A stretch of DNA of 64,000 nucleotides from Roseibium suaedae (lineage in GTDB: Bacteria; Pseudomonadota; Alphaproteobacteria; Rhizobiales; Stappiaceae). Position numbers and translations under genes: made by a program. The notes beneath the pieces were generated by a model that had not been told where the DNA came from, did no database searches, and saw only the letters and a list, made by a program, of their open reading frames with translations. The stretch is from assembly GCF_900142725.1 (NCBI RefSeq), contig NZ_FRBW01000005.1, positions 62,001-126,000 on the forward strand, given 5' to 3'. Shown here one piece after another: positions 51,022 through 60,687 of this stretch. Within the stretch, counting starts at the first letter, position 1. Every line of letters begins with the position of its first letter.

Positions 51022-51927
51022 TCAGCGCTTGTGCGCACCGATGAGCACTTCCATCATCTTCATTTCTTCCGGGGTCAGATCCTGCAGCGGAGACCGGACG
51101 GGACCGGCATCAAATCCTTGCAGGCGGACCCCGGCCTTGATCGCAGAGACCGCATAGCCCTTGGCCCGGTTGCGGATCGCCATGAAGGGATAGAAGAAGT
51201 CCTTCAGGATCGTCTCGCACCTGGAGCGCTCACCCGCCCGCAGCGCCTTGTAGAACTCGACGGCAAGAGCCGGCACGAAGTTGAACACGGCAGAGGAATA
51301 GGTGGTGAAGCCTGCACCGAGATAGGCTTCGGCAAAAAGCTCGGCAGTCGGCATGCCGCCCAGATAGGTCAGCCGGTCGCCCATCTTTGCCGTGATCTGC
51401 CGCACCAGCCCGATGTCGCCTGTTCCGTCCTTGAAGCCGACCAGATTGGGACACTCGTCGCACAGCCTTGCCAGAGTGTCGGCCTGAAGCACCGAATTAT
51501 CCCGGTTATAGACCATCACGCCCATACCCGTTGCCTGACACACTGCCTTGATATGACGGTAAAGGCCTTCCTGCGGCGCATCGATCAGGTAGTGCGGCAG
51601 AAGGAGAATACCGTCCGCCCCAGCCTTCTCGACGGCCTTTGCGATCGAGACGGCTGTCCGCGTGCCATAGCCACAGCCAGAGACAATCGGCGTCTTGCCA
51701 GCAGCTTCCTTTGCAACGCGGACGATCTGCGGGATCTCCTGCGGTTCAAGGGAAAAGAATTCGCCGGTGCCACCTGCGGCAAACAAGGTCGCGGCCTCGA
51801 AGCCGGACAGCCAGTTCACATGGTCAGCGTAACTATTGGCGTTGAAGTTCCCTTCCGCATCAAAATGCGTGACGGGGAACGACAAGAGGCCAGCGCCAAG
51901 GGCGTGTTTCAGATCTTCGGTTTTCAT
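51022..51927 (-). CDS. kdgD: 5-dehydro-4-deoxyglucarate dehydratase-like protein
   Basis: 301 residues from the ATG at 51927 with AGGAGGATAA upstream. [48 protein letters not shown] and [11 protein letters not shown] match KdgD closely, with Tyr (VYN) and Lys (FKD) as the Schiff-base pair. KdgD dehydrates and decarboxylates 5-keto-4-deoxyglucarate to 2-oxoglutarate semialdehyde. The setting, after an aminotransferase and HyuAB genes and without glucarate or galactarate dehydratase, makes a different substrate possible. The gene is last in its operon. Confidence 0.82.
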
Positions 51928-51995
51928 TTCAGTTATCCTCCTTTGCGCAGACAAGGTGCTGCCCTGACTGCTGATGTTGGTCTTGAAGTGAGAGA

Positions 51996-53201
51996 TCAGG
52001 GCTTGAGAGAGTTCACCATCCGGGCGATCCGGGCACAGGCCGCCTCCAGCTCCTGGTCGGAAGCAGCAATCGACAGGCGAATGAAGCCGGGCGCTCCGAA
52101 TGCGAGGCCTGGAACACTGGACAGGCCGAATTCCGTCAGAAGATGAGAGGCGAAGGCCGGATCATCTGCCAGAACCTCGCCTGCAGCAGTCTTGTAGCCC
52201 AGCAGTTTTCTGACGCCGATGAAGGCATAGAAGGCGCCGTCTGGGGGTGTGAACTCCAGCTCTGGGATCAGCGCGAGCCGCTCTGCAACGATCATCGCCC
52301 GGCCCGCGAAGGTCTGCGCGCCCTTGCCGACAAAGGACTGATCGCCGGTCAGGGCCGCAAGGGCTGCCGCCTGGACCACAGGGCAGACGGACGTCACGCT
52401 TTGAGACTGCATCTTGTTCAAGGCGGCCATCAGCTGCCGGGGACCAGCTGCATAGCCAACCCGCCAGCCGGTCATCGCATAGGCCTTGGACACCCCGTTC
52501 ACGATCAGGGTGCGGTCCCGGAGCGCCGGACAGGCCGCGCCGAAAGACACGAAAGGCACATCGCGCAGCAGCACATGCTCATAGATCTCATCCGAGAGAA
52601 CGAGGATCTGCGGATAGCGGCTCAGAACGGCTTCCAGCGCAGCATACTCGGCGGCGCTGTAGATGGCGCCGGTCGGGTTGGACGGAGAATTCAGCATCAG
52701 CCAGCGGGTGCGGGGCGTAATGGCCGCCGCCAACATGCCGGGCGTCAGCTTGAAACCGGTCTCCGGCCCACAATTGACATAGACCGGCTTGCCACCATGC
52801 AGGGAAACGATATCGCCGTAGGACACCCAGCACGGGGTTGGAATAATGACCTCGTCACCCGGCTCCAGAGTTGCCAGGAACACATCGAACAGGATCTGCT
52901 TGGCCCCGTTTGCGACCATGATCTCGTCCGGCGCATAGGTCAGACCGTTCTCGGTCCTGAACTTGGCGGCAATCGCCTGGCGCAGGTTTTCCTGACCTGC
53001 CGGAACGCCATACCGGATCCGGCCCTTCCGGATCGCCTCAATTGCCGCGTCTGCGACATGGGCTGGCGGCTCGAAATCCGGCTCTCCCAGCGAGAGATCG
53101 ATGATGTCTCTCCCCTCGGCAGCCAGTTTCTTGGCCGCCATCGCGATCGCCATGCTCGGAGAAGACTTGATGCCCGCTGCCCGACTGTTTTCGAATGTCA
53201 T
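51996..53201 (-). CDS. Class I PLP aminotransferase, aspartate aminotransferase-like
   Basis: 401 residues of fold type [20 protein letters not shown] opens the family pattern, the substrate/PLP region reads [23 protein letters not shown] holds the PLP-N1 aspartate, and the lysine is in [16 protein letters not shown]. It transfers an amino group to a 2-oxo acid. GAGGAATGCG precedes the start, 92 bases after hyuB. As part of the HyuAB operon it may deaminate the ring-opened product (inference). Confidence 0.92.
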
Positions 53202-53293
53202 TCTCGCATTCCTCGAAACTGGAAAGAGGAGGCAGGACGAGGCGATGCCCCGCCCTGCCGGTCAGGCGCTCGATGGGGACGCGCCTTGGGAGG

Positions 53294-59426: not shown

Positions 59427-59436
59427 CGCCCCCTCC

Positions 59437-60192
59437 TCAGTGATTGAGAATCTGGCCGAGGAACGCTCTGGTCCGCTCGTGGCCCGGATTGCTGAAGAAG
59501 GCTTCCGGCGCCGCGCTCTCGATGATTTCGCCCCGGTCCATGAAGATCACGCGGTGGGCAACGGCCCGGGCAAACCCCATCTCATGGGTGACGCAGATCA
59601 TGGTGATGCCGTCGTCCGCCAGAGAGATCATGGTGTCGAGCACCTCCTTGACCATTTCCGGATCAAGCGCGGAGGTCGGTTCGTCGAAGAGCATGACTTG
59701 CGGGTCCATGCAGAGCGCCCGGGCGATGGCAACACGCTGCTGCTGACCACCGGAGAGCTGCGCGGGATATTTGGCCGCCTGTTCGGCGATATGCACCCGC
59801 TCCAGGTGGCGCATGGCCTTGTCTCTGGCTTCAGCGACAGACGTCTTGCGCACCCGCCGCTGGGCAAGCATGCAGTTCTCGAGAACAGTCAGATGCGGAA
59901 AGAGATTGAACTGCTGAAACACCATGCCGACGTCACGGCGGATGTGATCAGCGTTGTTTCCCTGAGGTCCCAGCTCCGTGCCATTGACGAAAATCGCCCC
60001 CTTCTGGATTTCCTCCAGATGATTGATGCAGCGGATCAGGGTGGATTTGCCCGAGCCGGACGGTCCGCACAAAACGATGTGCTCTCCGCGGGCAACGGTC
60101 AGATCAATGTCCTTGAGGACGTGAAGCGGGCCAAACCACTTGTTGACGCCAATCATCTCGATGGTTTTGTCCGACATGCTGGACCGGTCCAT
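59437..60192 (-). CDS. Polar amino-acid ABC ATPase
   Basis: 251 residues. Walker [17 protein letters not shown] loop [13 protein letters not shown], signature [17 protein letters not shown], Walker [14 protein letters not shown] and switch [11 protein letters not shown] are intact, as in GlnQ/HisP. AAGGGGAA before the ATG at 60192 supports this start; MSDKTIEM at 60177 is possible. It energises the two permeases. Confidence 0.94.
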
Positions 60193-60213
60193 GCCAATTC
60201 CCCTTTTGTGTTC

Positions 60214-60687
60214 TCAAGCTTTGGCTGCAACTTCGAAAATGGCATCGACCTCGACAGAGGTGCCGCGCGGAAGGGAACCGGCACCAAGCGCCGTTCGCGC
60301 ATGCCGCCCCTTTTCGCCGAAGATCTGAACAAGAAGATCGGACGCGCCATCGATCACCGCCGGATGCCCCTTGAAATCGGCAGGCGCATTGACGAACCCG
60401 CGCAACTGGGCACAGGCGATCACCCGGTCGAGGTCTCCATCCAGCGCATGGTTCACGCGTGCCACAAGGTTGAGGGCACAGAGCCGGGCCGCCTGATACC
60501 CCTCTTCCGGAGTGACCTCCTGTCCGACGACACCTGCGTAATGCTCAACACCATCGATCCGGGGGATCTGGCCTGAAATGAAGAGAAGGCTTCCGACAAG
60601 CCGGTATGGGACATAGTTGCCCGAGGCCGGTCCGATTGCGGGCAATACGACGCCCAGCTCGGAGAGACGTGCAGAAACGACACTCAT
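60214..60687 (-). CDS. Rid-family (YjgF/YER057c) protein
   Basis: 157 residues, longer than RidA (about 126). GSLLFISGQIPRIDG, then ARLCALNLVARVNHALDGDL, and the arginine-bearing ARTALGAGSLPRGTSVEVDA are family landmarks. It probably hydrolyses an imine or enamine made by the operon's own enzymes, or acts as an amidase-like Rid member as in other degradation operons. It is the first gene of the leftward operon, 21 bases before the ATPase, facing the GntR gene. Confidence 0.88.
   Translation of the reverse strand: MSVVSARLSELGVVLPAIGPASGNYVPYRLVGSLLFISGQIPRIDGVEHYAGVVGQEVTPEEGYQAARLCALNLVARVNHALDGDLDRVIACAQLRGFVNAPADFKGHPAVIDGASDLLVQIFGEKGRHARTALGAGSLPRGTSVEVDAIFEVAAKA

What the first reader, a model, noticed from the sequence alone, without database searches (positions are those of the whole stretch)
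51022..60687. Unassigned HyuAB operon: ABC importer, cyclic-amide hydrolase, aminotransferase, KdgD-like lyase and Rid protein
All nine genes run the same way behind one GntR-bearing divergent region. The order suggests import of an amino-acid-like lactam, imide or hydantoin, ATP-driven ring opening, transamination and a final dehydration/decarboxylation to a semialdehyde, with the Rid protein clearing imines. I do not recognise this combination as a described pathway.
Basis: inference. Interest (0 to 1): 0.56.

Follow-up and report, generated by a model that had tools for sequence, protein, structure and literature searches.

The report
Hydroxylated-lactam catabolic operon, aldarate-linked
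A nine-gene bacterial operon, conserved across many soil and marine relatives, looks like an undescribed pathway that imports a sugar-like cyclic amide, opens it with ATP and feeds the carbon into the known sugar-acid route to 2-oxoglutarate; the substrate is inferred, perhaps a plant iminosugar acid or its lactam.

Summary
The nine genes are present as described, with catalytic residues intact, behind a divergent GntR/FCD regulator. The set is a conserved module: in 46 loci retrieved with HyuA alone, KdgD lies within 10 kb in 31, in four placements; in 34 loci with more distant HyuA, 0. KdgD matches Agrobacterium keto-deoxy-galactarate dehydratase over 300 residues (556 bits), which points to the keto acid 5-dehydro-4-deoxyglucarate. 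Working back, the aminotransferase substrate would be 2-amino-4,5-dihydroxyadipate and its lactam 4,5-dihydroxy-6-oxopipecolate. Variant loci (R. etli, Mesorhizobium, a Klebsiella plasmid) replace the aminotransferase by a PLP protein of the D-serine-deaminase/D-threonine-aldolase fold and add a sarcosine-oxidase-family flavoenzyme and a uronate-dehydrogenase-like enzyme, as expected if cyclic amino acids (hydroxypipecolates, iminosugar acids) are first oxidised to the lactam. The window genome lacks close relatives of those two, and its binding protein lacks the usual ammonium-binding Asp, consistent with importing the lactam. Its HyuA nests within Rhizobiaceae although the genome is Stappiaceae: horizontal acquisition. 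No activity has been shown; the substrate (dihydroxy or trihydroxy, stereochemistry) is inferred. Two paper searches found nothing combining these enzymes.

The parts
51022..51927 (-). KdgD: 5-dehydro-4-deoxyglucarate dehydratase/decarboxylase (the ORF extends to TTG 51954)
   Evidence: Above both NCBIfam cut-offs; 556 bits over 300 residues to PDB 4UR7, keto-deoxy-D-galactarate dehydratase; Lys175 and Tyr149 (ORF numbering) invariant in 32 of 32 aligned rows
51996..53201 (-). Class I/II PLP aminotransferase (aspartate-aminotransferase-like), proposed to make the keto acid
   Evidence: PF00155; PDB 6f35/6f77 aspartate aminotransferases; K239, D204, Y207, N175, R375, Y64 invariant in 60 of 60 aligned rows
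53294..54949 (-). HyuB: metal-binding hydrolytic subunit of an ATP-dependent lactamase
   Evidence: PF02538; D49, H109, D112, H134 invariant in 80 of 80 aligned rows and aligned with the CapB metal ligands (PMC8453981 passages)
54946..57036 (-). HyuA: ATP-binding/phosphorylating subunit
   Evidence: PF05378/PF01968/PF19278; nearest solved: N-methylhydantoinase 7hk5 and caprolactamase subunit 6yra_A; checked positions of the P1, P2 and GxxPGP motifs conserved in 80-81 of 81 aligned rows
57212..58087 (-). SBP_bac_3 periplasmic binding protein; Arg126 kept, Ser208 at the position of the usual ammonium-binding Asp
   Evidence: alignment columns
58098..58748 (-). Amino-acid-type ABC permease
   Evidence: PF00528, TIGR01726
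58758..59426 (-). Amino-acid-type ABC permease
   Evidence: PF00528, TIGR01726
59437..60192 (-). ABC ATPase (GlnQ/EhuA-like)
   Evidence: PF00005
60214..60687 (-). Rid-family protein (enamine/imine hydrolase type)
   Evidence: PF14588; PDB 3d01, 2otm, 9bk9; Arg131 and Glu146 invariant in 42 of 42 aligned rows
60817..61072 (.). Candidate GntR operator region: four matches (three exact, one with a mismatch; two overlap) of half-site AGAGRTRCTA; weak evidence
   Evidence: a match in the corresponding intergenic stretch in 9 of 20 relatives tabulated
61152..61904 (+). Divergent GntR/FCD regulator
   Evidence: PF00392 + PF07729; a homologue somewhere in 45 of 46 group A loci

Best explanation
This is a catabolic operon for a hydroxylated six-ring lactam acid, most likely a hydroxylated 6-oxopipecolate (4,5-dihydroxy, or 3,4,5-trihydroxy = a glucaro/galactaro-delta-lactam). 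The ABC importer takes it up. HyuAB activates the amide with ATP and opens the ring to a 2-amino-hydroxyadipate. The PLP enzyme removes the amino group (by transamination if C3 is unsubstituted, or by beta-elimination if C3 carries OH, with Rid hydrolysing the enamine/imine), giving 5-dehydro-4-deoxyglucarate. KdgD dehydrates and decarboxylates this to 2-oxoglutarate semialdehyde, and an aldehyde dehydrogenase (encoded at some relatives' loci, elsewhere in this genome) finishes to 2-oxoglutarate. Shown here: gene content, intact catalytic residues, conserved linkage, placement of HyuA among Rhizobiaceae. Inferred: every reaction other than the family-level chemistry, and the substrate.
For: (1) KdgD within 10 kb of HyuAB in 31 of 46 group A loci, in four placements (13 downstream same strand, 8 downstream opposite, 6 upstream opposite, 4 upstream same), against 0 of 34 loci with more distant HyuA; loci were chosen by HyuA only. 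(2) An aldehyde dehydrogenase for the next step appears at part of the loci: one cluster (nearest PDB 3v4c, named only aldehyde dehydrogenase (NADP+); KGSADH role recalled/inferred) in 9 of 46, and a GucD-like one in 3 of 46 (one scanned: 550 bits, cut-off 770). (3) The amino-acid step is swapped in L082, L083, R. etli L130, Mesorhizobium L134 and Klebsiella L131 for a D-serine-deaminase/D-threonine-aldolase-fold protein, with a second, threonine-dehydratase-like PLP protein in L082, L130 and L134, Rid kept, and no aminotransferase match in L130, L131, L134. (4) L082, L130, L131 and L134 add a SolA-type amine oxidase (65-100% alike) and a uronate-dehydrogenase-like SDR (63-99% alike; 49-56% to the L084 one); 23 of the 34 distant loci carry such an SDR. 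(5) This genome has no close relative of either (best 31 and 64 bits), and the binding protein keeps the carboxylate Arg but has Ser for Asp: Ser in 31 of 33 group A binding proteins without a gap, the other two with a one-residue gap beside it and also no Asp; 7 of 9 other SBP_bac_3 proteins of the genome that could be aligned have Asp. (6) ATP-dependent OplAB hydrolyses delta-valerolactam and derivatives (PMC11033972 abstract). (7) Hydroxylated pipecolates occur in legumes and cucumber (passages).
Against: No activity data. In 15 of 46 group A loci KdgD is not in the held flanks; 5 of these loci are shortened by contig ends, 10 have full 10-kb flanks. KGSADH is not in this locus, and no ALDH of the genome reaches the GucD cut-off. 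In 8 of 46 loci the aminotransferase was not found (2 have the D-serine-deaminase-like protein, 6 neither). I did not find hydroxylated 6-oxopipecolates reported as natural growth substrates; glucaro-delta-lactam appeared only as a ligand of a glucuronidase structure. The aminotransferase is far below its best equivalog cut-off (489 vs 617), so its substrate is unknown. Two other binding proteins of this genome (L141 with Asn, L139 with Ser) show that loss of the Asp is not unique to this operon. The hairpin at 53231-53259 could separate AT-KdgD from the upstream genes.
Confidence: 0.55

Rival explanations
1. HyuAB is a hydantoinase: a 5-substituted hydantoin is opened to an N-carbamoyl amino acid, which is decarbamoylated elsewhere, then transaminated and passed to KdgD.
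For: Nearest solved HyuA/HyuB relative is an N-methylhydantoinase (7hk5).
Against: No carbamoylase is annotated in five tabulated loci (tables can be incomplete), nor among the neighbour proteins scanned. The hydantoin would still have to carry the dihydroxyacid side chain that KdgD requires.
Confidence: 0.1
2. HyuAB is an ordinary 5-oxoprolinase and KdgD/aminotransferase sit beside it without a common pathway.
For: Pfam names cannot separate these activities.
Against: Linkage in 31 of 46 loci in four placements against 0 of 34 with more distant HyuA; a separate fused 1194-aa oxoprolinase-type protein exists in this genome.
Confidence: 0.05
3. KdgD has changed function (another keto acid, e.g. 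an aldolase or a deaminase like the hydroxyproline-pathway DHDPS member), so the six-carbon dihydroxyadipate inference fails while the lactam-opening part holds.
For: DHDPS-family members do diverge; the deaminase of hydroxyproline catabolism is in the same superfamily and also yields KGSA (PMC4113996 passages).
Against: 556 bits to the A. tumefaciens enzyme; above both KdgD cut-offs; published KdgD and KdaD are reported active only on their native substrates (PMC13398020 abstract and passages).
Confidence: 0.12
4. The operon breaks down an opine-type sugar-amino-acid lactam. HyuAB genes on Ti plasmids have been proposed to open lactam forms of opines.
For: Proposals for succinamopine and rideopine regions (PMC6733357, PMC8554961 passages); many group A loci are in Agrobacterium/Rhizobium, some on plasmids.
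Against: None of the nine genes is an opine oxidase; KdgD has no evident role for those opines; the loci extend to Stappia, Paracoccus and Microvirga, and a variant to a Klebsiella plasmid.
Confidence: 0.06

Closest known systems
ATP-dependent lactamase (HyuAB/OplAB/CapAB) pathways: caprolactam and valerolactam degradation in Pseudomonas
   Same: Two-subunit HyuA/HyuB architecture, ATP motifs and HyuB metal ligands conserved (PMC8453981 passages); lactam opening followed by a PLP enzyme and an aldehyde dehydrogenase (recalled for caprolactam; only the listing of PMC6061476 was seen)
   Different: Scores far below the CapA/CapB equivalog cut-offs (459.5 and 174.8 vs 1000); here KdgD follows, implying a hydroxylated dicarboxylate
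Oxidative hexuronate/aldarate pathway (Udh - Gci/GudD - KdgD - KGSADH; partly recalled)
   Same: KdgD orthologue and, at part of the loci, aldehyde dehydrogenases and uronate-dehydrogenase-like enzymes
   Different: Entry is through an amino compound and an ATP-dependent lactamase instead of an aldarolactone; needs a PLP enzyme and Rid
trans-4-Hydroxyproline catabolism (epimerase - DAO oxidase - DHDPS-family deaminase - KGSADH)
   Same: Cyclic hydroxy-imino acid to 2-oxoglutarate semialdehyde through a DHDPS-family enzyme (PMC4113996 passages)
   Different: Five-ring, no lactam stage, no HyuAB or aminotransferase; different DHDPS subfamily
L-Pipecolate catabolism (pipecolate oxidase - aldehyde dehydrogenase - 2-aminoadipate - aminotransferase; recalled)
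   Same: Logical parallel: six-ring amine to 2-aminoadipate-type acid to keto acid; variant loci carry a SolA/sarcosine-oxidase-family flavoenzyme
   Different: Proposed route passes through a lactam opened with ATP, and ends at KdgD

Membership tests
ATP-dependent lactamase / HyuAB family | HyuA ATP motifs DxGGTxTD, DxGGT, GxxPGP | tested here: met
   All three read in the window sequence; one position of each checked, conserved in 80-81 of 81 aligned rows; alignment to 6yra_A and 7hk5
ATP-dependent lactamase / HyuAB family | HyuB metal site Asp-His-Asp-His | tested here: met
   D49, H109, D112, H134 in 80 of 80 aligned rows
ATP-dependent lactamase / HyuAB family | ATP-dependent hydrolysis of a cyclic amide | not testable with these tools
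   Needs enzyme assay
Caprolactamase CapAB | NCBIfam NF050156/NF050157 equivalog cut-offs (1000 bits) | tested here: not met
   459.5 and 174.8 bits
KdgD (5-dehydro-4-deoxyglucarate dehydratase) | Above NF002958 and TIGR03249 cut-offs | tested here: met
   444.9 vs 278 and 414.1 vs 373.95
KdgD (5-dehydro-4-deoxyglucarate dehydratase) | Schiff-base Lys and catalytic Tyr | tested here: met
   K175 and Y149 invariant in 32 of 32 aligned rows; roles per PMC13398020 (K167/Y141 in AbKdgD), equivalence by motif, not by a direct alignment to AbKdgD
Class I aminotransferase | PLP Lys, Asp, Tyr, Asn and carboxylate Arg | tested here: met
   All invariant in 60 of 60 aligned rows; roles recalled
Aspartate transaminase PRK06107 equivalog | Cut-off 617 bits | tested here: not met
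   489 bits
RidA-type enamine/imine deaminase | Active-site Arg (Arg105 of RidA; recalled) | tested here: met
   Arg131 in 42 of 42 aligned rows and in the 3d01 and PA0814 alignments; equivalence to Arg105 not aligned directly
Hydantoin utilisation (hydantoinase + carbamoylase) | N-carbamoyl amino acid amidohydrolase in the cluster | tested here: not met
   None in the nine window genes nor annotated in five loci
5-Oxoprolinase | Acts on 5-oxoproline | not testable with these tools
   A separate fused HyuA-HyuB protein exists in the genome
Oxidative aldarate pathway | KGSA dehydrogenase present | tested here: inconclusive
   Not in the operon; a 55%-identical relative of the linked ALDH lies at G000:C6:1245130; no ALDH in the genome passes NF042993

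The most novel reading that the evidence does not exclude
Bacteria carry a previously unrecognised, horizontally mobile catabolic route for iminosugar acids and hydroxylated pipecolates (plant glycosidase-inhibitor-type compounds) or their aldaro-delta-lactams. A sarcosine/pipecolate-oxidase-type flavoenzyme makes the cyclic imine, a uronate-dehydrogenase-like enzyme oxidises its hemiaminal to a polyhydroxy-6-oxopipecolate, HyuAB opens this lactam with ATP, PLP enzyme plus Rid deaminates it to 5-dehydro-4-deoxyglucarate, and the sugar-acid enzymes KdgD and KGSADH finish to 2-oxoglutarate. The window operon is the short form that starts at the lactam.
Probability: 0.4. Interest if true: 0.75.

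Novelty: new variant of a known kind. Interest (0 to 1): 0.6.

Why it matters
It would join two pathways that I found nowhere described together: ATP-dependent lactam hydrolysis and the aldarate route. It gives a precise substrate prediction for a widespread HyuAB group annotated only as 'hydantoinase/oxoprolinase', offers a reason for a Rid protein in a catabolic operon, and makes testable the question of what happens to plant iminosugar acids and hydroxypipecolates in soil and the rhizosphere.

Tried and rejected
Operon includes the downstream TRAP transporter (47807-50727): rejected as part of the module. No window-type TRAP-DHDPS-ALDH-DAO block follows the operon in the named group A relatives (TRAP DctM genes near some HyuAB loci are only 25-34% alike), and there is a 294-bp gap.

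Creatinine/N-methylhydantoin route for the HyuAB groups with a DAO gene (L106-L114, L028-L034): four neighbours scanned in L106 are a Cys/Met-type PLP enzyme, a glyoxalase-like protein, an SDR and an IclR regulator, not a carbamoylsarcosine hydrolase; not pursued.

Operator: half-site AGAGRTRCTA was read off this intergenic region and then counted, so the count is circular; 4 matches in 64 kb is what chance gives (4.19), although all four fall in 256 bp. Of 20 loci tabulated (one further id on my list, L130, was not in the stored set), 9 have a match in the corresponding intergenic stretch and 11 do not. Weak.

Tree: quick method, some branches long; used only for placing the window HyuA among Rhizobiaceae and for grouping L082, L083, L130, L131 and L134.

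Dihydroxy versus trihydroxy substrate: not resolved. An aminotransferase suits the dihydroxy compound; the variant PLP proteins and Rid suit a 3-hydroxy compound.

Literature: (KdgD name with oxoprolinase, or with hydantoinase) found 0 papers; among the titles and abstract starts listed (20 of 35 shown), 79, 80 and 81 none is on bacterial catabolism of these iminosugar acids. The library lacks most subscription journals.

Structure prediction and fold search were not used: sequence matches already fixed the folds.
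Full report
OBSERVATION. Nine - strand genes at 51022-60687 were confirmed by ORF and family scans. In transcription order: Rid, ABC ATPase, two permeases, SBP_bac_3 binding protein, HyuA, HyuB, aminotransferase, KdgD. A GntR/FCD regulator is divergent at 61152. HyuA probably starts at 57036 and KdgD at 51927. The genome is 5.14 Mb in 14 contigs and the window is G000:C9:62001-126000.

CATALYTIC RESIDUES. Among the rows that passed a coverage and score filter, the checked HyuA ATP-motif positions are conserved in 80-81 of 81, HyuB metal ligands in 80 of 80, aminotransferase residues in 60 of 60, KdgD Lys and Tyr in 32 of 32 (a nearby Thr in 31 of 32), Rid Arg and Glu in 42 of 42. 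KdgD matches PDB 4UR7 (A. tumefaciens keto-deoxy-D-galactarate dehydratase; the species is recalled) over 300 residues with 556 bits; the next match has 106. Family-level chemistry is therefore intact.

IS THE SET CONSERVED? A scan of the 84,980-species collection with HyuA alone returned 80 loci (of 158 candidate stretches 127 encode a relative and the best 80 were kept, so weaker relatives are not counted). I divided them by HyuA identity: group A (67-94%, 46 loci) and the rest (58-65%, 34 loci). In group A: HyuB 46, GntR homologue 45, Rid 41, aminotransferase 38, binding protein 33, KdgD 31 of 46 (ABC ATPase 36, some of them unrelated). In the rest: KdgD 0, Rid 0, aminotransferase 21, uronate-dehydrogenase-like SDR 23, one DAO-family cluster 22, TPP enzyme 21 of 34. 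KdgD occupies four different placements relative to HyuA, so the association was not inherited as one frozen block. This genome has two proteins above the KdgD cut-offs; by simple proportion a given locus would have one within 10 kb about 1% of the time, so about 0.4 would be expected in 46 (my estimate). In 15 of 46 KdgD was not seen; 5 of those loci are shortened by contig ends, 10 are not. The groups include near-duplicate species, so counts are not independent events. In the window's own family, 16 of 87 genomes have a HyuA at E <= 1e-150, but apart from the window's genome only six, all of one other genus, have a group A orthologue (73-75%); all six have KdgD on the opposite strand close to HyuAB, with an ALDH gene beside it.

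WHAT THE SET IMPLIES. KdgD makes 2-oxoglutarate semialdehyde from 5-dehydro-4-deoxyglucarate, a six-carbon dicarboxylate, and published KdgD enzymes are reported active only on that substrate (PMC13398020, abstract and passages). A transaminase feeding it must act on 2-amino-4,5-dihydroxyadipate, and the six-ring cyclic amide of that acid is 4,5-dihydroxy-6-oxopipecolate. ATP-dependent HyuAB relatives are known to open six-ring lactams (PMC11033972 abstract). Linked ALDH genes supply the following step at part of the loci: one cluster in 9 of 46 (best solved match 3v4c, named aldehyde dehydrogenase (NADP+), with no NCBIfam match at 1e-60 in the four scanned; its KGSADH role is recalled/inferred) and a GucD-like one in 3 of 46. 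On S. meliloti pSymA an ALDH 89% identical to the latter directly follows KdgD.

VARIANT LOCI AS A CROSS-CHECK. R. etli CIAT 652: KdgD, semialdehyde dehydrogenase (59% to the first ALDH cluster), Udh-like SDR, threonine-dehydratase-like PLP protein, sarcosine-oxidase-like flavoenzyme, GntR, then HyuA, HyuB, a PLP protein of the D-serine-deaminase/D-threonine-aldolase fold (the corresponding L082 protein was compared with solved structures), Rid and the ABC importer. Mesorhizobium WSM4875 is similar (KdgD there 59% to the window's) and adds a 2-hydroxy-3-oxopropionate reductase. A Klebsiella pneumoniae plasmid has SolA-like, Udh-like, HyuA, HyuB, the same PLP-fold protein (53% to R. etli), Rid and ABC genes, without a KdgD match in the fetched 22 kb. 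Enterobacteria cleave 5-dehydro-4-deoxyglucarate with GarL (recalled), so KdgD would be dispensable there. None of the three has a match to the window's aminotransferase in the fetched stretch. Direct comparison shows the flavoenzymes of L082, L130, L131 and L134 to be 65-100% identical and their SDRs 63-99% identical, and the SDRs 49-56% identical to the L084 one, which matches solved uronate dehydrogenases (3ay3, 3rft; E 6e-90 and 2e-80). L130's second PLP protein is nearest to threo-3-hydroxy-L-aspartate ammonia-lyase (239 bits, below the cut-off 452). Both replacement PLP proteins belong to groups acting on beta-hydroxy amino acids; beta-elimination of the 3-OH of 2-amino-3,4,5-trihydroxyadipate would give the very same keto acid through an enamine, the kind of intermediate that Rid proteins hydrolyse (recalled). 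Retro-aldol cleavage, the reaction of D-threonine aldolases, is not excluded for the first. In Pseudomonas putida L071 no binding protein or permease of the window type was found and an MFS protein resembling sugar-acid transporters follows Rid (TIGR00893, 325 bits, below cut-off 395).

WINDOW-SPECIFIC TESTS. The genome has no close Udh-like gene (best 31 bits) and no close SolA-like gene (best 64 bits, 26%), so the window route probably begins at the lactam. The binding protein keeps the carboxylate-binding Arg126 but has Ser208 where AncQR and AncCDT carry Asp. Of 33 group A binding proteins 31 have Ser there in a gapless alignment; the other two (L082, L083) have a one-residue gap beside it and no Asp. 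Of 11 other SBP_bac_3 matches in this genome, 9 could be aligned and 7 have Asp, one Asn, one Ser (distant rows, alignment less sure). The role of that Asp in holding the alpha-ammonium is recalled. This fits an amide nitrogen. An ALDH of the first cluster lies elsewhere (C6:1245130, 55%); no ALDH of the genome reaches the GucD cut-off. The genome also has a fused 1194-aa HyuA-HyuB protein, the usual layout of 5-oxoprolinase (recalled). The second KdgD (61%) sits beside a peptide-type ABC transporter, a beta-glucosidase and a UxuA-like gene; the seven neighbours scanned include no HyuAB.

ORIGIN. The window HyuA is 94% identical to Rhizobium wenxiniae and nests in Rhizobiaceae, while the family is Stappiaceae: two 'same family' genomes give HyuA rows identical to Stappia indica SBBC 49 and Stappia sp. 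WLB 29, with matching contig lengths 587,507 and 511,855. None of the 44 other same-genus genomes has a group A orthologue. Horizontal acquisition is the simplest reading.

NATURAL SUBSTRATES. 4,5-Dihydroxypipecolic acids are reported from legumes (PMC12299671 passages; PMC6271146 passages); 3,4,5-trihydroxypipecolic acids occur in Baphia racemosa and cucumber (PMC9143674 passages; PMC6224328 passages). Glucaro-delta-lactam appears as a beta-glucuronidase ligand (PMC7933434 passages). None of these papers treats bacterial catabolism in the passages I read.

VERDICT. A real, conserved and mobile catabolic module of known enzyme families in an undescribed combination (no paper in the held library has the KdgD name together with oxoprolinase or hydantoinase). 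The end of the route (KdgD to KGSA) is strongly supported; the lactam identity is a specific inference at about even odds; dihydroxy versus trihydroxy is open.

Noticed in passing
window 43785-50727: A neighbouring - strand cluster: TRAP transporter (DctP/Q/M), DHDPS-family protein (below the dapA cut-off), ALDH and DAO-family oxidase, with a LysR at 42634-43713. DAO + DHDPS + ALDH is the set of hydroxyproline-type catabolism, so two adjacent clusters may converge on 2-oxoglutarate semialdehyde.
   Followed up: partly
L131 (Klebsiella pneumoniae plasmid pINF192.3) 7741-18510: A plasmid typed as conjugative (IncFIB, IncHI1B) carries the SolA-Udh-HyuAB-PLP-Rid-ABC variant; three Klebsiella plasmid records in all matched the PLP protein.
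   Followed up: partly
L084-L105, L115, L117 (most): A sister HyuAB group has a different conserved operon: HyuA-HyuB-aminotransferase-Udh-like SDR-DAO-TPP enzyme (PRK08199), which suggests decarboxylation of a keto acid instead of KdgD.
   Followed up: partly
L106: A third HyuAB group (Marinomonas; the same gene clusters recur in L107, L108, L110, L114 and L028-L034) pairs DAO and HyuAB with a Cys/Met-type PLP enzyme, a glyoxalase-like protein and an SDR, again amine oxidase + dehydrogenase + lactamase + PLP enzyme.
   Followed up: no
window 35019-41508: SHMT, a sarcosine-oxidase-alpha/GcvT-type protein and another DAO protein form a separate methylated-amine-type cluster.
   Followed up: no
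window 53231-53259: 13-pair G+C-rich hairpin between HyuB and the aminotransferase with a weak T-rich tail, a possible attenuator or processing site.
   Followed up: no
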